In this document: positions 1 to 32,284 of the stretch, one piece after another
Position numbering within the stretch: the first letter of the stretch is position 1
Layout: every line of letters begins with the position of its first letter
Assembly: GCA_030593165.1 (NCBI GenBank)
Contig: JAUVHR010000005.1
Span: forward strand, 1 to 34,738
Source of the DNA: Candidatus Thorarchaeota archaeon
Lineage (GTDB): Archaea; Asgardarchaeota; Thorarchaeia; Thorarchaeales; Thorarchaeaceae
Direction of reading: 5' to 3'
Length of the DNA: 34,738 nucleotides
Program-made: the position numbers and the translations under genes
The notes under the pieces: generated by a model
Seen by the model: only the letters and a program-made list of their open reading frames with translations
Told to the model about the DNA's origin: nothing
The model's database searches: none

Positions 1-77
1 AGAGTGTTTACGGATATGAGAGCTGGCTGAAAGTACAAATAAGAAATCAAATAGTACCAGAAATTCAGGTGAAACCA

Positions 78-494
78 ATGCCAAAGGATTTACATTTTGA
101 AGTCGCTCTATCATTTGCAGGCGAACAGAGACCCTATGTAAAACAAGTCGCATTAACATTACGAAACAGGAGAGTGCGAGTTTTCTTTGACGAGTTTTAT
201 GAAACCGAAATGTGGGGAGAGAACCTTCCTGAATTTCTAAATTCTATTTACGAAAAGAAATGTGATTACTGCGTAATGTTCATCTCAAAAGAATATGCCA
301 CAAAATACTATCCGACTCACGAAAAAAGATCAGCTCTCTCCGACCAAATTAAAGTTCTTGAAGGTAGAATATTACCGGTAAAATTCGATGACACAGATTT
401 ACCCGGAGTTCCTAGCAGTACTATGCACCTCTCAGCAGAAAGGGATACACCTGAACAAATCGCAGAGAAAATAATCAAGAAAATACGGGGATGA
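78..494 (+). CDS. TIR-domain protein (TIR_2-like), possible NADase
   Basis: The protein is 138 residues and essentially one TIR domain. It has the N-terminal strand motif VALSFAGE, a BB-loop-like region around FFDEFYE and WGENL, the strand CVMFIS, and then HEKRSA. The Glu of HEKRSA (about residue 82) aligns with the position I expect for the catalytic Glu of NAD-cleaving TIR domains. The segment ILPVKFDDTDLPG is typical of the bacterial and archaeal TIR_2 type. An SD-like AGGTGA lies 5 nt before the ATG at 78, which decides this start; GTG at 69 is an alternative. The same frame stays open to the left window edge with 23 further sense codons, so a longer protein with a C-terminal TIR cannot be excluded. 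It converges with the next gene, 2 nt apart. A role in NAD depletion during immunity or signalling is inference from the family. Confidence 0.85.
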   Translation: MPKDLHFEVALSFAGEQRPYVKQVALTLRNRRVRVFFDEFYETEMWGENLPEFLNSIYEKKCDYCVMFISKEYATKYYPTHEKRSALSDQIKVLEGRILPVKFDDTDLPGVPSSTMHLSAERDTPEQIAEKIIKKIRG

Positions 495-2330: not shown

Positions 2331-2361
2331 CTGATTGATCCAGTACGAGCGTGATAATCAG

Positions 2362-3015
2362 ATGTCCTCAAGAAGTAGACAAGCAGCGGCAAGGACTCGG
2401 GACAAATGGAGAGAGAAGGTCTGGTTTCAAATTCTTGCACCAGATTACTTCGATGGTAAGGAGATTGGAAAGACTCCGGCTAGTAATCCCGAATTGCTCA
2501 TCGGACGAACAGTCCAACCTACACTCTATGATCTCACAGGAGATTTTGATCAGATTCATGTGAAACTACGATTCAAGATTCTTGAGGTAACGGGACAGCA
2601 GGCAAAGACCGTCTTCCATGGTCATGAATGGAGCTCAGACTATCTTAGAGGTCTTGTGAAAAGAGGAACATCACGAATCGACTGGATAGGTCCAATTCTT
2701 ACTAGAGACGACTACTTGATGCGAATCTCCGTAATTGTCTTCACGAACACCCGATCGAAGACAAGTCAGGAACATGCCGTAAGAAAAGGAATCGAGAAGG
2801 TAATTGTAGCCCACGCAAAGAAACACGTCTTTGATGACCTCGTACAGAAGGTGGTTCTCGGTGAACTTGCCTCCGAGGTTCGAGAAGAAGTGAGAACGAT
2901 AGTTCCAATCAGAGAATGTGAGATTCGAAAGAGCAAGGTACTCAAGGGTCCTGAGGAAGTAAAGGCAAGAAGAGTCCGTCTTCGGAGAGGTACTCAGAAG
3001 GAAACAAAGAGCTAG
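2362..3015 (+). CDS. rps3ae: Ribosomal protein eS1 (S3Ae)
   Basis: This is a 30S subunit protein found in archaea and eukaryotes. The 217-residue product opens with the basic region SRSRQAAARTRDKWREKVWF. It then shows the family segment ILAPDYFDGKEIGKTPAS, followed by IGRTV, the DLTGDF strand, and the Lys/Arg-rich central part with LRGLVKRGTSRIDW. Length matches archaeal S3Ae. I chose ATG at 2362 because an SD-like GTGAT lies about 7 nt upstream; TTG at 2335 would add nine residues. It has its own TATA-like box and a structured leader. The next gene is convergent, 16 nt away. Confidence 0.92.
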   Translation: MSSRSRQAAARTRDKWREKVWFQILAPDYFDGKEIGKTPASNPELLIGRTVQPTLYDLTGDFDQIHVKLRFKILEVTGQQAKTVFHGHEWSSDYLRGLVKRGTSRIDWIGPILTRDDYLMRISVIVFTNTRSKTSQEHAVRKGIEKVIVAHAKKHVFDDLVQKVVLGELASEVREEVRTIVPIRECEIRKSKVLKGPEEVKARRVRLRRGTQKETKS

Positions 3016-5372: not shown

Positions 5373-5618
5373 CTACTCGATAGAATCTGCGGTTCTTAAT
5401 GACAAGCTAATGGCACTCATCAAATCCTCTAGTGTTGCACGAAAACTGTCTACTCCTCGCGTACACTTTATGCTGATTAGGATTCGATTGTCATCCAGTT
5501 GGGTTTCAATGTGGAGCCCCTGCGGCAGAGGTACATTATCAGGAGAAACTGATTGTAGGGTCCTTGCTGCAATGGGTGAATCGTTAAATGATAAGATAAT
5601 TTCAGCGGAAAACATCAA
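5373..5618 (-). CDS. pcc1: KEOPS complex subunit Pcc1
   Basis: The 81-residue product matches Pcc1 in size and pattern: an N-terminal strand, the ARTLQSVSPDN motif, a central strand (IETQLDDNRILISIKC) and a C-terminal amphipathic helix with SFRATLEDLMSAISL. Pcc1 is the dimerisation subunit of KEOPS, which with Kae1 and Bud32 makes N6-threonylcarbamoyladenosine (t6A37) in ANN-decoding tRNAs. Its ATG overlaps the stop of the upstream DHH-like gene by 4 nt (ATGA), so it is probably translationally coupled as the third gene of an rps15-DHH-pcc1 operon. Kae1 and Bud32 lie 2-3.6 kb away on the same strand. Confidence 0.88.
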   Translation of the reverse strand: MMFSAEIILSFNDSPIAARTLQSVSPDNVPLPQGLHIETQLDDNRILISIKCTRGVDSFRATLEDLMSAISLSLRTADSIE

Positions 5619-6964
5619 TTGACCGCCCCTCGGATGTCACTTATAGCTTTCAAGATAGTTTCTGATATCTCCGAGTATGGACTGGAAATTTGAACTGATT
5701 TCGCGGAACTGGAATGTGGATTGAGACCAAGCTCTTTCAATCTACGTAAAACCGTGTTCAAGCCAACTTCGCTCTTATACCAAGAGATATTCATGCAGTT
5801 CTTGGTGTGAAATATTGTCAAATGTTCGCGGTCTGAAACTCCAATTTCAAAAAGTACACGTGCGACATCAGCTAGCGTTTCGTTCTTCGTACCTGACGGG
5901 CATGGGTGGACTGCGAATTCTTCATCTGTATTGTCATTATCAACTGTTAGTAGAAGTTGCCTTACAACCGATATTACAGCTTCACTGTGATTCTTGTGGA
6001 TGTTGACCAGATTCTCCATGAGTTTGGAACGGTCACCCATTAGGACTCCAGTTGTGAGTCCTAGTATCCATCTACTCCATGCTGTTAATGCAAGCGGCCT
6101 AATTCCAGACAATAGACGTAGCGGACTCTTTCTATTCTCATGTACAAGAACGTAGTCACGTCCCAAGGCCATCTGGAGTATAGATGTTTTGAGCTTGGAA
6201 TCAATCTGAACGAGTTGGCCGCTTAGTCGAGGCATCTCGTGTTCATCCAAAGAAGTTAGTGGCATACCTCTTTTGGTGAGAGGTATATCAGCGTCATCCA
6301 AAATTTTTTCACATAATTGTGGTTCGCCACTTATTCCAGGCAGAAATGGGTATGTACTGTGCAATAGTGATTGTTTAAGAGCCATGAAGTTAGTTCCAAA
6401 AATCTTGAGCCCTTTACGTTTTTCGAGAACTCCCTCCTTTATTGCAAGACTAATGAGTTCCTCTGATGTCTTGCTTGGAGAACGATCAGTCCCATCTTGT
6501 ATCAGTGCTCCTGCGGCTGCAATCTGCAAGTCACCTTGGTTCACAGAGAATTTCTCTTTGGCAAAGGCATATGCTGCAGCTGCTATTGAACTGGTACCAC
6601 CTACGACACTTATCTTATCTTGCTTGGGTTCCAGAGAACCGCCAATTATAGTTGGATATCTCCTTCCTTTTCGTAAGTTTTTCTTCCCAATAATCTCAGT
6701 TCCCACGACTAAGGTAATTGAATCAGAATGGATTTTTCGGAGATTGTTGATAGATTCGCTGTCAAGTAACACATCAACGAATGTGATATGAAAGAGTGAA
6801 CCAAATCTCTGAATTGCTCTACTCAGTAATGCTGTGGCTAATGTTGCCTCTGGTTGAGGAGATGAGATAAGAAGAAATCGGTTGTCGGGCTTCACCTCAA
6901 TCGTACTGCACTGCTTGATTAGCTGCTTGAAACTGGTGGAACGTTTTGACTTCTGTCTTGTCAC
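5615..6964 (-). CDS. DHH/RecJ-like protein, apparently catalytically dead
   Basis: This 449-residue protein occupies the place, next to rps15, where many archaea carry a RecJ-like (GAN/Cdc45-related) DHH protein. The fold signature is visible: an N-terminal strand with LLISSPQPEATLATALLSRAI, and a later DHHA1-like region. However, motif I, usually SHxDxDGxxSA, reads SSPQPEATLAT (residues 34-44), and I find no DHH triad; the expected strand reads LVVGTEII. All expected metal-binding Asp and His residues therefore look absent, which suggests a structural role, perhaps binding GINS-MCM as Cdc45 does. It starts 37 nt after rps15 and overlaps pcc1 by 4 nt. Nuclease activity is unlikely; the replication role is inference. 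Confidence 0.72.
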   Translation of the reverse strand: MTRQKSKRSTSFKQLIKQCSTIEVKPDNRFLLISSPQPEATLATALLSRAIQRFGSLFHITFVDVLLDSESINNLRKIHSDSITLVVGTEIIGKKNLRKGRRYPTIIGGSLEPKQDKISVVGGTSSIAAAAYAFAKEKFSVNQGDLQIAAAGALIQDGTDRSPSKTSEELISLAIKEGVLEKRKGLKIFGTNFMALKQSLLHSTYPFLPGISGEPQLCEKILDDADIPLTKRGMPLTSLDEHEMPRLSGQLVQIDSKLKTSILQMALGRDYVLVHENRKSPLRLLSGIRPLALTAWSRWILGLTTGVLMGDRSKLMENLVNIHKNHSEAVISVVRQLLLTVDNDNTDEEFAVHPCPSGTKNETLADVARVLFEIGVSDREHLTIFHTKNCMNISWYKSEVGLNTVLRRLKELGLNPHSSSAKSVQISSPYSEISETILKAISDIRGAVN

Positions 6965-7001: not shown

Positions 7002-7463
7002 TCAACGCAGATATGCAGCCACTTGGTCAGGCGAGTATTTCCAATCGGCAGACAAAACTCTCGTGCGTCTGTAGTATTTTGAAAGCCGGTGTATCTTGCT
7101 CTCTACTAGCTGGAGAGCACGCTTGGAAACGAAGTCCTTCTTGTTCTCTTCAAGATGACGACGAAGTTTTGCTGCTGATGCAATCATGTTTCGTAGGTCT
7201 TCGGGAAGTTGTCTTTGTAAATCATTATCTCGGAGGATATCCATGATTCGTCGTCCAGTTATTACACGTGCAAGTGGGACACCAAATTGGTCTCGAAGAA
7301 TCAATCCAATCATAGAAGGACTATTCCCTGCCTTGCCAAGTTCAACAACTTTCTCTTCGACCCACTGAGCATTCTTCTCTGACTCCATCCATTCTGGGAC
7401 TCTCAATGTAGAAGGGCGTTTGCTTCCAGACTGACCTTTGCGCCTTGTGTGCATTCTTGCCAT
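7002..7463 (-). CDS. rps15: Ribosomal protein uS15
   Basis: The 153-residue protein is an archaeal/eukaryotic-type uS15 with the N-terminal extension MARMHTRRKGQSGSKRP, the W-based region VEEKVVELGKAGNSPSMIG, and the core helices with LRRHLEENKKDFVSKRAL and HRLSKYYRR. It binds 16S rRNA in the platform of the 30S subunit. SD-like GAGG lies about 8 nt before the ATG, and a TATA-like box lies about 65 nt upstream. It is the first gene of the rps15-DHH-pcc1 operon. Confidence 0.95.
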   Translation of the reverse strand: MARMHTRRKGQSGSKRPSTLRVPEWMESEKNAQWVEEKVVELGKAGNSPSMIGLILRDQFGVPLARVITGRRIMDILRDNDLQRQLPEDLRNMIASAAKLRRHLEENKKDFVSKRALQLVESKIHRLSKYYRRTRVLSADWKYSPDQVAAYLR

Positions 7464-17398: not shown

Positions 17399-17980
17399 TC
17401 AAGACACCGATTGAGCTACTATGCTCGCCCGCATTGCATCCTGAAAAAGTAATTGAAATGCCTCCGTGATATTGAATCCTTGGCAGGCGATGCTCTTGAA
17501 GACAGGAATAGAATTGGGAATCCTAAGGTATGTTCTAATTTTGTCTTCACCAACTGTATTAGGAAGGTCTTGTTTGTTTAGGCACACCACAACTGGTAGA
17601 AAGCGTTCTTCGTCCGCGATTACAGACATCAGTTCATTCCAGCTAGCTCTATTCTCTTCAAGTAGGTGTTCTTGAGAGTCTGCAATGAATATTACACCAT
17701 CAGTACCAACAAGAACTACTTCCCGGGTTGATCGGTAGAAGTCCTGTCCCGTCGCGGACCAGATATGGGCATTTATTCTCCAACTGTCAGAAAGCTGGAA
17801 TGGTATGGTGCCAAAATCACAAAACATAGTTCTGCCCACAGTATTTTCAATTGAAGTTAACTTGTCTGCAATATCCATTGATGAGAATAGCCACCTGATT
17901 GCGGTTGTTTTGCCGCCCATTGCGGGTCCAAAGAAGACTATTTTTACGCTGACTGTTCGGTTACCATAGTCGATTATCAA
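17399..17980 (-). CDS. Small Ras/MglA-like GTPase
   Basis: The 193-residue protein has the small-GTPase motifs. G1 is GPAMGGKT (18-25) and a Thr in NTVGRT near 48-51 is the likely G2. G3 reads SATGQ (75-79) without the usual Asp, as in the MglA-type TxPGQ. G4 is NKQD (135-138) and G5 is SIACQG (163-168). There is no C-terminal Cys prenylation motif. It is the last gene of an operon with a protein of unknown function (13-nt gap) and a tandem LC7 protein. MglA GTPases pair with roadblock/LC7 proteins as their regulators, so the three probably form a GTPase circuit. Confidence 0.88.
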   Translation of the reverse strand: MIIDYGNRTVSVKIVFFGPAMGGKTTAIRWLFSSMDIADKLTSIENTVGRTMFCDFGTIPFQLSDSWRINAHIWSATGQDFYRSTREVVLVGTDGVIFIADSQEHLLEENRASWNELMSVIADEERFLPVVVCLNKQDLPNTVGEDKIRTYLRIPNSIPVFKSIACQGFNITEAFQLLFQDAMRASIVAQSVS

Positions 17981-17993
17981 TCTACGACTCCTC

Positions 17994-18914
17994 CTATGTT
18001 CCCCACATGCTATCTACCCAAGCTCCCAGACCTGAGAGTGCTCCTCCTTTAACACAGTCTGAGAAGTCCTCATGCCATTCGGCTCTAATGAAGGATATTA
18101 GCTCTGGCAGACTTCCCCCTTCCCACCCAACAGCCTCATACAGATTCCTTTCAGTGAGTGTGGTTGAAGCCCCCAGTTCTCTTGCAAGTCTTATCCTTGA
18201 TAGAAGAGTAACAGCCCTGCGTGCTGCATGTACATAGTTGCTTATCTCTTCAATAAACATGTCATGAGTAATCTTCTCTGATTCATCGTCAAGCTTTAGT
18301 ATGGCATTCAAGATATGGTCAGGAACTTTCACACCACGTAGCGACTTCTGTAGTAGTCTTCGTATTCGCTCAAGTGACTGCCTCTTTCTAGTGAGTATCT
18401 TACTAACAATTCGTTTCTCTACATCAAGACTGCTCTGACATTCCTTTGCAAGTGAGAAAGTCACTGTTGATGGTGAGGTGACTCTGAGGATTCCACAATT
18501 TGGAGAGCACTGCAGAACCTTTGTGAGTACTTCCTGAAGTGTCTGGATATTGAGGTTTGTTCCAAGAACCTTGCGTCCAAGTGGGGCTGCAATTATCCAG
18601 CCCGAAAAATGGTTGATTCTCTCTAGGGCTAGACCTAAGTTCGAAGAAAGGCAACAGACAACTGTTCGACTAACTTCGTAGTTGTGTTTTTCTTCCTCCC
18701 AGACAGAGAGAAGTTCACTTTCAGCAGTAAAATCCCTCCAGAAAACAATCTTGTGTCTATGTGAACTGAGAACAGTCACACTCTCGGTGATGTCTTCCAC
18801 AAGCTCAATGTCTTCTCCCGTCACAAGAATTGGCTGTCTGCCAAGTACAGAATTAAGGAGTAATGGGAACTGATCGTCCATCAATTCGATTAGTTGTAGA
18901 ATCGAGTATGTCAT
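17994..18914 (-). CDS. Unknown protein between LC7 protein and GTPase
   Basis: I do not recognise this 306-residue protein. The first half (about 1-150) is alpha/beta, with strands such as QPILVTGEDIEL, HKIVFWRDF, RTVVCCLSS and SGWIIAAPLG. Its spacing resembles a degenerate P-loop or receiver-like fold, but there is no GxxxxGKT. The second half is helical and basic (RIVSKILTRKRQSLERIRRL), with a helical stretch containing NYVHAARRAVTLLSRIRLA that could be a lid or winged-helix-like region. Its ATG overlaps the stop of the LC7 gene by 4 nt (ATGA) and it is followed after 13 nt by the GTPase. This context makes a GTPase regulator, effector or adaptor the leading idea. Confidence 0.65.
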   Translation of the reverse strand: MTYSILQLIELMDDQFPLLLNSVLGRQPILVTGEDIELVEDITESVTVLSSHRHKIVFWRDFTAESELLSVWEEEKHNYEVSRTVVCCLSSNLGLALERINHFSGWIIAAPLGRKVLGTNLNIQTLQEVLTKVLQCSPNCGILRVTSPSTVTFSLAKECQSSLDVEKRIVSKILTRKRQSLERIRRLLQKSLRGVKVPDHILNAILKLDDESEKITHDMFIEEISNYVHAARRAVTLLSRIRLARELGASTTLTERNLYEAVGWEGGSLPELISFIRAEWHEDFSDCVKGGALSGLGAWVDSMWGT

Positions 18915-19858
18915 GGTTTTCTCCTCGCCAAAATGAGGCCACCTTCAGAGCTCGCGGAAAGCAGTAACTCCTGTAGGTCCTTTGGAACTGCGGGTTTGGT
19001 TACTGATGCGGAATGGAGAACTCTTCGAATCTCGTCAATATAGTGTTTCAGAAGAAGTCTCATCAGACCAAGCTTTTGACTATTTTTATCGACCCAGAGA
19101 CTGAAGACACCATTTGGTACTGCGTAAATAATATGCCGTGTCTTCTCTGTTTCGCACATAACTGTCTGGAGCGAACTGTTACGAAGTGTTCTAACAACAC
19201 GCTCGGAGGAGTCATGGAGAGCAAATGACATGGCGGCTAGTCTATCGTTCGTGAACCCTTCTAGAGATACTCTAACACCTCCACTCAGAGCAAGAAACAC
19301 CGAGTCGATACTTGGAATGCTGTCATGTATCTGCTTCAGAAGCGTTCTAAGAGTCAATGATTGAGAACGGTCAAGTGATATTAATGATCGAGTAAGTGTA
19401 TAGTGATTTTCCTCGCCATCTGAAACTGTGAAGCCACTCAGTACTCTTTGGGTTTCATCATGACTATAAGAGCGTAGAGGAGGCAGTCTTCCATCTATGT
19501 GCTGCCTCAGAAGAAATGATATCCTTGAGAGATTATCCTTCATTTCTATGAAAAGGGCGGCTAGATTGACTCGCGGGGCTGTGGTGATAGCAAGGAAGTA
19601 ACTGGGATCATTGGGGAGTGATGCAAGAAAGACCTTTGATGTATTAGATTCCATCAAGAGAAACTTGAAGGTGCCATGTATCAGTCGAGCAACACCGAAT
19701 ATTGCACAAGTAGCTGAAGCGACTGCAAAGACCTCATCCTTACTGAACCAGACACCAGCACTGGCAACAGGCAGTCCATCTTTCTGGACTAGGATTACAT
19801 TCTCCACCCCTGTAATCATCTTGATGTTTTGTAGTGTATCATGGAGGTCTTCTGTCAC
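18911..19858 (-). CDS. Tandem roadblock/LC7-domain protein
   Basis: The 315-residue protein contains two roadblock/LC7 folds. The first (about 5-115) is clear: GVENVILVQKDGLPVASAG, AVASATCAIFGVARLI, a strand with KVFLASLPND, FLAITT, and a helix LAALFIEMKDNLSRI. The second (about 175-285) repeats the layout, with IDSVFLALSGGVRVSL, RLAAMSFALHDSSERVV and FSLWVDKNSQKLGLMRLLLKHYIDEIRR. A charged linker joins them. Roadblock proteins dimerise and bind small GTPases such as MglA, Rag or Rab. It starts with GTG and leads the operon with the 306-residue protein and the GTPase; a TATA-like TTAAATA lies 40-50 nt upstream. Two copies in one chain could act as a built-in pseudo-dimer. Confidence 0.82.
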   Translation of the reverse strand: MTEDLHDTLQNIKMITGVENVILVQKDGLPVASAGVWFSKDEVFAVASATCAIFGVARLIHGTFKFLLMESNTSKVFLASLPNDPSYFLAITTAPRVNLAALFIEMKDNLSRISFLLRQHIDGRLPPLRSYSHDETQRVLSGFTVSDGEENHYTLTRSLISLDRSQSLTLRTLLKQIHDSIPSIDSVFLALSGGVRVSLEGFTNDRLAAMSFALHDSSERVVRTLRNSSLQTVMCETEKTRHIIYAVPNGVFSLWVDKNSQKLGLMRLLLKHYIDEIRRVLHSASVTKPAVPKDLQELLLSASSEGGLILARRKP

Positions 19859-29413: not shown

Positions 29414-31504
29414 CTAGGCCCGTTTTACCTTGCCATCTTGTGGATTGAAGAGGATACCCTCTGTAACCAGTTTTCGTATTACAGCCTCTGCAGCCTCACG
29501 GCTCACACCCATCTCTGTGACACGTTTGATGAGAACTTCCTCATCCACGACTGAGGTGCCATCATCTTCTAGACTTTTCATAGATGAAATGACCTTGTCA
29601 GATAAGCTACGTTGTGCTGCACTCATCTTCGACACTACTTGATCGATGTCGATTTTTCCTGTAATTCTATCCAGTGCGACCATTCTCAGGGATTCTTCCA
29701 TGAGACGTACAGATGCTTGAGCATCCTCCTTGTTGACCTTCGGTCGAAGTGCCATTTTAGCCCTAGCTTCTGAAAGACGTACTAGCGACTCCAGCTGGCG
29801 AGCTGTAATTGGAATTGGTGCGGCTCCACCCTCCGCAGTCTTTCTTAGATCTACATAGAAGTTCTCGATGACTTCAGCTGCTTCTGCTGTTAGTTGTGGA
29901 ATGACATAACGATTTGCATACCCGATATACTTCTTCAAAAACGCGGCTGGTATCACTTCGACTTTTGTTGATGTCGGTGTCTGTTGATGTTGATGCATGC
30001 CAAGAATGAATTGTGCAAGTTCGCGGTCTCTTGTTGCTTCGATAGTATCGATGAGTATCCAGATTAGGTCAAATCTGGATAATATTGTGAATGGTAACTT
30101 AATGTTGTCTTGGACTGAAAGTGAGGATTCATAGCGTCCCAGAGAAGGGTTTGATGCAGCCAATATTGATGTTCGAGCATTCAATGTTGCTACAATCCCA
30201 GCCTTTGCTATGCTAATGGTGTGTTGTTCCATAGCCTCGTGAATTGCAGTTCGATCATTTGGATCCATCTTATCGAACTCGTCTATGCATGCAATTCCCT
30301 GATCAGCAAGTACTAGCGCTCCTGCTTCTAGGGTCATTGCTCCAGTGTCAGTATCATGAACTACTGCAGCTGTGAGACCTGCAGCTGTAGTTCCTTTTCC
30401 GGAGGTGTAAAGACCGCGCGATGCTAGTTGGGCAACGAACTTCAGAATCTGACTCTTACCTGTTCCAGGATCTCCAACTATCAGGATGTTTGAACGGCCT
30501 CTCAGGCGGGTGCCTCCAGGTAGTGTTTTTCCAACTCCACCAAAAACGAGAAGTGCAATTGATTCCTTGATGAGCTCGTGTCCCTGAATTGAGGGGGCAA
30601 TCGAAGCAAAGATTCTTTCATGGACATAGGGGTCTTCTGCAAGCTCCAAAATCTCTTTCTTTTCTTGGTCAGTTATCTCCAGTTGTTCATACTCTTTCTC
30701 TGCAACCTCCACACCATTTGCATCTATAAATACGTTAAACGTAGCAAGCTTTGCGCCACGACGACTGAAATCGGGGGTTGTCTGTAGAATCCCAGTGACC
30801 TTGACTAAGTCACCCGGTCGTGATGTATCGACAATGTCTCCACGAAATGTTACATCTACCGAACGCGGCATCTGTCCGGGCGGAAGCTCTTCTGGGGATT
30901 CCTGAATCCGAACCTTCTGCCAGTCGATAAAATGTGACTCCTCGGGAACTAGTCTTACTGGTGGACGTTGTTTCTCATAGTAGGAACAATTTTCATTGGT
31001 ACAGGAGTTTGGTAGTGTATATTGACCATCTTCTTGTTGCACTACTATGAGAGTCTTGCATTCCTTACATTGGAATGCCCCAACTTCCAGAAGTGGTTTG
31101 ACCTCACTTGCACGCATCAATATACCACCAATCTGGATCAATTTCCCTATGTGAATGGATCTTATTGCTCTGAGAGGAACATGCTGTTCCACATAGTTGA
31201 TAATGCGTACTAGAAGCTCTGAAGTCCGCTTCTGTAGTGACTCCACATAGTCAGGGTCCTCATTTCTTAGGATGGCCAAGAACGCTAATCTGGCAGCCTC
31301 TAGTAGGGTGCTAGGTTCATTTGTAGCATCAGTAGTAAATTGATTGTCATAGCTAGACAAGTCCTTAAAATCGACTGATAATGACCTTTCCTCATTCAGT
31401 GAAAGTTGGCGAATTTTCATAAGATACGTTAGATTTCCATGTTCATCCTTGTAGTTGCGCAGAAAATCGGTGAATCTGTCTGTCATCTCTTGAATGTCTG
31501 TCAT
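29414..31504 (-). CDS. mcm: MCM replicative helicase
   Basis: The replicative MCM is homohexameric. The 696-residue protein has the N-terminal helical domain, a zinc finger (CKEC and CTNENC), an OB fold with the beta-hairpin region, and the AAA+ core. The core has Walker A GDPGTGKSQ, Walker B ACIDEFDKM, sensor 1 NPSLGRY, arginine finger LSRFDLI, and a C-terminal winged helix ending LVTEGILFNPQDG. There is no intein. I prefer ATG 31504, with GAGGCAC about 7 nt upstream; ATG 31555 would be almost leaderless from the TATA-like box at 31583-31592. It lies between gins23 and hel308. Confidence 0.96.
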   Translation of the reverse strand: MTDIQEMTDRFTDFLRNYKDEHGNLTYLMKIRQLSLNEERSLSVDFKDLSSYDNQFTTDATNEPSTLLEAARLAFLAILRNEDPDYVESLQKRTSELLVRIINYVEQHVPLRAIRSIHIGKLIQIGGILMRASEVKPLLEVGAFQCKECKTLIVVQQEDGQYTLPNSCTNENCSYYEKQRPPVRLVPEESHFIDWQKVRIQESPEELPPGQMPRSVDVTFRGDIVDTSRPGDLVKVTGILQTTPDFSRRGAKLATFNVFIDANGVEVAEKEYEQLEITDQEKKEILELAEDPYVHERIFASIAPSIQGHELIKESIALLVFGGVGKTLPGGTRLRGRSNILIVGDPGTGKSQILKFVAQLASRGLYTSGKGTTAAGLTAAVVHDTDTGAMTLEAGALVLADQGIACIDEFDKMDPNDRTAIHEAMEQHTISIAKAGIVATLNARTSILAASNPSLGRYESSLSVQDNIKLPFTILSRFDLIWILIDTIEATRDRELAQFILGMHQHQQTPTSTKVEVIPAAFLKKYIGYANRYVIPQLTAEAAEVIENFYVDLRKTAEGGAAPIPITARQLESLVRLSEARAKMALRPKVNKEDAQASVRLMEESLRMVALDRITGKIDIDQVVSKMSAAQRSLSDKVISSMKSLEDDGTSVVDEEVLIKRVTEMGVSREAAEAVIRKLVTEGILFNPQDGKVKRA

Positions 31505-31582
31505 CGACGTGTGCCTCGAAGCCTGCTCCCTAAGTAGGCAAGTGACAAAAATCATCTTGCCCGACTAGTAATCGGGGTCTGA

Positions 31583-31610: not shown

Positions 31611-32171
31611 CTATTCTGTAATTTTCGTATGCCATTGCAGGAGTATTTCGGAGAGCCTGTTACATAACCATTTTTCTTCGTTAGTCATGTGAGATTGCCA
31701 TTTGAAACAGGACCGCGAAACAGCTGCGCGCATGATTTTAGGTTGACGCATTTCTATCAATGATTTGAGTCGACTATCCAACCTCTCAATATCATCAACG
31801 GACACTGGGTCCAGTGATGTTTTATCGCGTTGTAATCGTGCAATTTTCCTGTTGACAGCCACATAGAAGAACGGTGGAAAATCTTCTAGTGCGCTGTGTT
31901 TCTGTTTCTGCTCGCGGTTGTGTAGTATGTCTACATTACGAGTTGAATCATAGGCATTTTGTATATGGACTTGAACATAATCCCTCTCAGAAAGCTTCTC
32001 GATTGCCCAATTGGGTAGTGTCACACTATCACCAGTCTTGAACGGCCCGAGTATCTGCCCTCCTACATTTAGTGCGGGCAGGTCCCTCTTGAACTCACAG
32101 GTTCGTGTTTCATTTAAGAATCCTATTGTGGTTCGTTCAATCGCCTCATCTGAACTGACTTGGAACTTCAT
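31611..32171 (-). CDS. gins23: GINS subunit, Gins23-like (B-A domain order)
   Basis: GINS links MCM and a Cdc45/RecJ-like protein in the archaeal CMG-like replicative complex. The N-terminal part (DLPALNVGGQILGPFKTGDS, then VTLPNWAIEKL) is the small beta B domain. The C-terminal helical A domain includes RLDSRLKSLIEMRQPKIMRAA. B before A marks the Gins23 type; the Gins51 partner is not in the window. The start is uncertain: ATGs at 32216, 32186 and 32171 are all possible, and I give the shortest because family similarity starts there. It is upstream of mcm and divergent from rfcS. Confidence 0.8.
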   Translation of the reverse strand: MKFQVSSDEAIERTTIGFLNETRTCEFKRDLPALNVGGQILGPFKTGDSVTLPNWAIEKLSERDYVQVHIQNAYDSTRNVDILHNREQKQKHSALEDFPPFFYVAVNRKIARLQRDKTSLDPVSVDDIERLDSRLKSLIEMRQPKIMRAAVSRSCFKWQSHMTNEEKWLCNRLSEILLQWHTKITE

Positions 32172-32284
32172 TCTTGTACACATCATTTGATGTACTATGC
32201 AGTCTGATAAAGGCATAGTTTACCGTTCATTGTAACTTGTCAGTCAAACATACCTTAAGATGCAAAGTGTACATTAGGACATGT

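What the first reader, a model, noticed from the sequence alone, without database searches (positions are those of the whole stretch)
5615..6964. DHH/RecJ-like protein without metal-binding residues
Motif I reads SSPQPEATLAT in place of SHxDxDGxxSA and no DHH triad is seen. Loss of nuclease residues parallels Cdc45, a RecJ-derived protein that works in the CMG helicase. The same window encodes GINS and MCM, so this may be an Asgard Cdc45-like scaffold.
Basis: partly seen in the sequence, partly recalled or inferred. Interest (0 to 1): 0.6.

Follow-up and report, generated by a model that had tools for sequence, protein, structure and literature searches.

The report
Dead RecJ nuclease, probable archaeal Cdc45
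This Thorarchaeota gene encodes a relative of a DNA-cutting enzyme that has lost every cutting residue but kept the part thought to dock onto the replication helicase, so it probably works as a structural helicase subunit, like Cdc45 in our own cells.

Summary
ORF 5615-6964(-), 449 aa, is a RecJ/Cdc45-fold protein: AF2 pLDDT 91.7; best PDB match M. thermautotrophicus RecJ-Cdc45, then GAN and eukaryotic Cdc45. It has no catalytic residues left. It sits in the ancestral archaeal operon S15-RecJ-Pcc1, where GAN/Cdc45-type genes normally lie. Its family, f1, is Thorarchaeota. In 40 f1 operon copies only 29 of 320 catalytic positions keep the canonical residue; in 17 second RecJ copies elsewhere in f1 genomes, 136 of 136 do. 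Selection is purifying (dN/dS 0.11-0.33). The best-kept part is the CMG-interacting domain. The genome also has MCM, GINS23 (this window) and GINS51. Best explanation: a catalytically dead GAN/RecJ ortholog acting as the Cdc45-like subunit of CMG, with nuclease work left to the separate active RecJ, which may be horizontally acquired. CMG binding is inferred, not shown. This is a known kind (crenarchaeal RecJdbh, haloarchaeal arCOG00428, Cdc45) in a lineage where I found no earlier report. Catalytic loss also occurs in Heimdallarchaeota-type families f6 and f8 but not in Hodarchaeota, so Asgard inactivation looks lineage-specific, not a shared step towards eukaryotic Cdc45.

The parts
5615..6964 (-). 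Catalytically dead RecJ/GAN-type protein (449 aa), proposed Cdc45-like CMG subunit
6845..6865 (-). Former motif I: SSPQPEA (residues 34-40) in place of SHxDxDG
   Evidence: alignments
6635..6643 (-). Former motif III: GGS (residues 108-110) in place of DHH
   Evidence: alignments
6191..6403 (-). CMG-interacting domain (CID, residues about 188-258), the best-retained region; G190, P206, G213 and L239 invariant, E243 in 93% of f1 operon copies
   Evidence: PF21763 match at 188-253; domain comparison
7002..7463 (-). Ribosomal protein uS15, upstream operon neighbour (37 bases away)
   Evidence: Pfam S13_N/S15; synteny
5373..5618 (-). Pcc1 (KEOPS), overlapping the RecJ stop codon, so probably translationally coupled
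   Evidence: Pfam Pcc1; sequence
2335..3015 (+). Ribosomal protein S3Ae, usual member of the same archaeal neighbourhood (here inverted)
   Evidence: Pfam; synteny
29414..31555 (-). MCM helicase, presumed partner
   Evidence: Pfam MCM 7.7e-95
31611..32216 (-). GINS23, presumed partner
   Evidence: NCBIfam Gins23 63 bits, below its cut-off of 120; Sld5 domain C-terminal

Best explanation
The gene is the Thorarchaeota ortholog, by operon position, of archaeal GAN/RecJ, the archaeal counterpart of Cdc45. It has lost all metal-binding and catalytic residues and persists as a structural protein. Shown: the RecJ/Cdc45 fold over its full length (predicted), loss of the active site, conserved operon position, purifying selection, and preferential retention of the CMG-interacting domain. 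Inferred: it binds the GINS51 B domain through its DHH domain and the MCM N-tier through its CID, bracing and activating the helicase as Cdc45 and Sulfolobus RecJdbh do. Nuclease functions such as repair would be done by the separate intact RecJ, which the tree groups with Altiarchaeales/Hydrothermarchaeota proteins and which may have been acquired horizontally.
For: AF2 model with pLDDT 91.7, pTM 0.92. Foldseek matches it over the full length to M. thermautotrophicus RecJ-Cdc45 (TM 0.75-0.77), P. furiosus RecJ, T. kodakarensis GAN and eukaryotic Cdc45/CMG subunits. The S15-RecJ-Pcc1(-S3Ae) synteny is shared with many Asgard families and with Thermococcus, Bathyarchaeota and others; it is the GAN/Cdc45 neighbourhood described in PMC3307487. 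Canonical catalytic residues: 29 of 320 in operon copies, 136 of 136 in second copies. Identity to active proteins relative to active-active identity: CID 0.55 against 0.26-0.42 for other domains, higher than any of 217 other 71-residue windows; the second copy is even at 0.72-0.86. dN/dS 0.11-0.33. MCM, GINS23 and GINS51 are all in the genome. Precedents: S. solfataricus RecJdbh is nuclease-dead, forms CMG-like complexes and boosts MCM (PMC7776575); CID contacts MCM and the DHH domain contacts GINS (PMC5484177).
Against: No interaction data; a complex could not be modelled here. The second, intact RecJ also keeps its CID and could fill the CMG slot. The tree groups operon copies of f1, f8 and f6 on very long branches, so orthology rests mainly on synteny. 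CID retention may partly reflect structural constraint in a conserved core.
Confidence: 0.72

Rival explanations
1. The separate, catalytically intact RecJ fills the Cdc45/GAN slot in Thorarchaeota, and the operon protein is a repurposed paralog with another role, such as ssDNA binding or regulation.
For: The second copy exceeds the RecJ_archaeal cut-off (414-436 bits), keeps all catalytic residues and its CID, and a second match is present in most f1 genomes. In Thermoplasma only one of two active RecJs joins CMG (PMC7776575).
Against: The operon copy holds the ancestral GAN position in f1, retains the CID selectively, and is under purifying selection. In the f6 and f8 genomes checked, the dead operon copy is the only clear full-length RecJ-family protein found, so a dead copy appears sufficient there.
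Confidence: 0.17
2. The operon protein keeps a non-nuclease job tied to its operon (translation or KEOPS) rather than replication.
For: Neighbours are uS15, Pcc1, Bud32 and Kae1, and the gene overlaps Pcc1.
Against: The same neighbourhood surrounds experimentally characterised GAN, which is a replication factor (PMC3307487); the best-retained region is the CMG-interacting domain.
Confidence: 0.06
3. A decaying pseudogene or annotation artefact.
For: Fast divergence: 25-41% identity of the window protein to other f1 copies.
Against: Intact frame in all 40 sampled f1 operon loci, dN/dS 0.11-0.33, confident fold, and invariant non-catalytic residues.
Confidence: 0.02

Closest known systems
Archaeal GAN / RecJ (arCOG00427; T. 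kodakarensis GAN, P. furiosus RecJ)
   Same: Fold, CID, operon S15-RecJ-Pcc1-S3Ae
   Different: GAN is an active 5'-3' ssDNA exonuclease with all motifs; here all are lost, and the score (69 bits) is far below the RecJ_archaeal cut-off of 360
Crenarchaeal RecJdbh/Cdc45 (SSO0295 family) and haloarchaeal arCOG00428
   Same: Inactivated RecJ derivatives; those in Halobacteria and Desulfurococcales lie in the same gene neighbourhood; Sulfolobus RecJdbh is a CMG component
   Different: Sequence not specifically closer (SSO0295_fam only 18.8 bits); full-length DHH-DHHA1 fold rather than the truncated Sulfolobus form; Thorarchaeota also keep a separate active RecJ
Eukaryotic Cdc45
   Same: Dead DHH site, RecJ fold with CID, structural match (TM about 0.5-0.65)
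   Different: Much shorter (449 aa against roughly 500-570 residues in the structures), no direct sequence match, and inactivation probably convergent because Hodarchaeota keep an intact site
M. thermautotrophicus RecJ-Cdc45 (7bih/7bhi)
   Same: Best structural match
   Different: Retains the catalytic residues

Membership tests
RecJ/DHH nuclease (active) | Motifs I-IV with DHH and metal-binding Asp/His | tested here: not met
   All eight catalytic positions of the window protein are replaced; 29/320 kept across 40 f1 operon copies
Archaeal GAN/RecJ, Cdc45-type (broad, active or dead) | DHH-CID-stem-DHHA1 fold | tested here: met
   AF2 model and Foldseek; profile match
Archaeal GAN/RecJ, Cdc45-type (broad, active or dead) | Position in the S15-RecJ-Pcc1(-S3Ae) neighbourhood | tested here: met
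   PMC3307487
Archaeal GAN/RecJ, Cdc45-type (broad, active or dead) | CMG-interacting domain present | tested here: met
   PF21763 at 188-253, E 1.3e-4 but below gathering cut-off; selective retention
Archaeal GAN/RecJ, Cdc45-type (broad, active or dead) | Binds GINS51 and/or MCM and stimulates the helicase | not testable with these tools
   Single-chain prediction only; no interaction data
NCBIfam RecJ_archaeal (NF053576) and GAN_nuclease (NF053575) | Score above curated cut-off | tested here: not met
   69.1 of 360 and 25.2 of 850 bits
SSO0295 / RecJdbh family | Score above curated cut-off | tested here: not met
   18.8 of 350 bits
Eukaryotic Cdc45 | Specific sequence kinship to Cdc45 rather than archaeal RecJ | tested here: inconclusive
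   No Cdc45 hit with the f1 profile A2; the mixed Asgard profile A3 gives one hit at E 0.0027 over 99 positions; structural match only

The most novel reading that the evidence does not exclude
Asgard archaea turned the replicative-helicase nuclease into a dead scaffold more than once (Thorarchaeota and Heimdallarchaeota-type families f6/f8, partly f16), with Thorarchaeota replacing the lost activity by a horizontally acquired active RecJ, while Hodarchaeota kept the active site. The inactive state of eukaryotic Cdc45 would then be one of several convergent events and would have arisen after the split from Hodarchaeota-like relatives.
Probability: 0.35. Interest if true: 0.6.

Novelty: new member of a known kind. 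Interest (0 to 1): 0.42.

Why it matters
Why Cdc45 lost the nuclease of its RecJ ancestor, and when, is an open question (PMC5484177). Asgard archaea are the closest prokaryotic relatives of eukaryotes, and here dead and active versions of the same operon gene occur in related lineages. This makes the question testable with paired proteins. Thorarchaeota also offer a natural split: a dead operon copy and an active copy in one genome.

Tried and rejected
A single inactivation shared by f1, f6 and f8 was considered: the tree groups them (94/95), but all have long branches, and a tree holding f6+f8+f9 together was not rejected (p-AU 0.18), so independent losses remain possible and neither is shown. 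Duplication within Thorarchaeota as origin of the second copy was tested: p-AU 0.06, not rejected at 0.05, so horizontal gain is tentative although the grouping with Altiarchaeales and Hydrothermarchaeota has 100/97 support. Conserved neighbours of the second copy gave no clear functional hint. Pseudogene rejected by dN/dS. The AF2 job on GINS23 was not finished when last asked; nothing rests on it.

Full report
OBSERVATION. The ORF 5615-6964 on the minus strand (449 aa, GTG start) is real. It overlaps the downstream Pcc1 gene and lies 37 bases from the upstream gene for ribosomal protein uS15. Sequence searches place it in the RecJ family: NCBIfam RecJ_archaeal 69 bits, Pfam DHH_CID E 1.3e-4 but below the gathering score, Pyrococcus RecJ and Thermococcus GAN in the PDB at about 2e-4. 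A profile of the 40 Thorarchaeota copies alone reaches P. furiosus RecJ at 1e-16. Every catalytic motif is gone. Motif I is SSPQPEA, motif II has Glu for Asp, DHH is GGS, motif IV has Gln for Asp, and the DHHA1 SxR and GGHxxAAG motifs are absent.

WHAT ORGANISM. The window is contig C249 of a 3.26 Mb genome, family f1. In the same way f9 matches Hodarchaeota (G048:C5, 4,804 bases = JAEOTC010000071.1), f8 Heimdallarchaeota (G039:C156, 50,604 bases = WAKA01000156.1), f3 and f4 Baldrarchaeota, f26 Odinarchaeia, f28 Sifarchaeum and f20 Lokiarchaeota. Family f6 was not directly named; calling it Heimdallarchaeota-type is my inference.

SURVEY. In 39 of the 40 sampled f1 genomes (window included) the RecJ-like gene lies directly beside S15; in the other (G188, L097) S15 is about 2.5 kb away with two genes between. 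Pcc1 was detected on the other side in nearly all. Only 29 of 320 canonical catalytic residues remain in these copies, most of them the motif II Asp. Seventeen second copies, elsewhere in f1 genomes and without S15 or Pcc1 beside them, keep 136 of 136. The window's own genome holds the C-terminal part of such a second copy at a contig end, with intact SGR and GGHPMAAG motifs (C354:4-444). Most other Asgard operon copies are intact (f2-f5, f9, f11-f15, f17, f24, f26-f29 and one f21), as are the named non-Asgard operon copies checked (Thermofilum, Bathyarchaeota, Altiarchaeales, Thermococcus, Thermoplasmata, Methanohalophilus and others). Operon copies in f6 and f8 have lost the site, and the f16 copy has partly lost it (NEDDDNDD in place of HDDDDHHD). 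A divergent f7 copy next to Pcc1 has also lost it. Lokiarchaeota have S15 directly beside S3Ae and carry RecJ elsewhere. In the f6 and f8 genomes checked no second full-length RecJ-family protein of the RecJ_archaeal type was found.

STRUCTURE AND SELECTION. The AF2 model is confident (mean pLDDT 91.7, pTM 0.92). Foldseek aligns it over its full length with M. thermautotrophicus RecJ-Cdc45 (TM 0.75-0.77), P. furiosus RecJ, T. kodakarensis GAN and Cdc45 of human, Xenopus, yeast and Entamoeba. dN/dS among close f1 relatives is 0.11-0.33. Compared with active proteins, the CMG-interacting domain is kept best: relative identity 0.55 against 0.26-0.42 elsewhere, higher than any of 217 other 71-residue windows. 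The intact second copy shows no such bias (0.72-0.86). Columns conserved in active proteins split cleanly: motif residues at or near 0% in f1 operon copies (the exceptions are the motif II Asp at 53% and a neighbouring Gly at 88%), while G190, P206, G213, L239 (CID), G268 and G310 are at 100% and E243 and D311 at 93-97%.

HOW IT LIKELY WORKS. CID contacts MCM and the DHH domain contacts GINS in CMG (PMC5484177); GINS51 B pairs with the first domain of RecJ/Cdc45 (PMC12035558). The genome encodes MCM and GINS23 in this window and GINS51 on another contig, beside an ORF that reads like the primase small subunit. In four other f1 genomes GINS51 lies about 15-19 kb from the operon RecJ. I infer that the protein is the Cdc45-like brace of a Thorarchaeota CMG. 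Precedent: Sulfolobus RecJdbh is nuclease-dead, forms CMG-like complexes and stimulates MCM (PMC7776575). Binding itself is not shown here.

EVOLUTION. A tree groups f1, f8 and f6 operon copies (94/95) on long branches and the f1 second copy with Hydrothermarchaeota and Altiarchaeales (100/97). Holding f6, f8 and f9 together is not rejected (p-AU 0.18), and a Thorarchaeota-internal duplication is not rejected at 0.05 (p-AU 0.06). So the number of inactivation events and the horizontal origin of the second copy are open. That Hodarchaeota, often placed nearest eukaryotes (general knowledge, not tested here), keep the site argues against inheritance of Cdc45's dead state from a common Asgard ancestor.

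KNOWN OR NEW. Dead RecJ derivatives in this same operon are known from Crenarchaeota and Halobacteria (PMC3307487). Literature searches found no report for Thorarchaeota or other Asgard archaea; the library is open-access only. I rate it a new member of a known kind.

Noticed in passing
window 3-494 (+): TIR-domain protein (PF13676, E 4e-13) at the contig end, next to an unannotated ORF (497-1237) and a tRNA-Leu; possible defence or mobile locus.
   Followed up: no
window 17399-19858 (-): Small GTPase (Arf/Ras-like) beside a roadblock/LC7 protein with an unknown ORF between them, a GTPase-roadblock pairing.
   Followed up: no
L001 1504-1779 (-): By eye, a second Pcc1-like protein in the same genome, near a prefoldin-like ORF and a DHH nanoRNase-like gene; possibly the archaeal Pcc1 paralog (Pcc2).
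   Followed up: no
L106 8719-10152 and L142 5632-7176: In f16 the operon RecJ is only partly degraded (NEDDDNDD for HDDDDHHD) while an intact copy lies elsewhere: a possible intermediate of the Thorarchaeota state.
   Followed up: partly
L213 6497-7528 (+): Caldivirga sp. MU80, the genus in which no RecJ was found in 2012 (PMC3307487), has a 344-aa ORF directly after S15; a candidate for the missing Cdc45-like protein.
   Followed up: no
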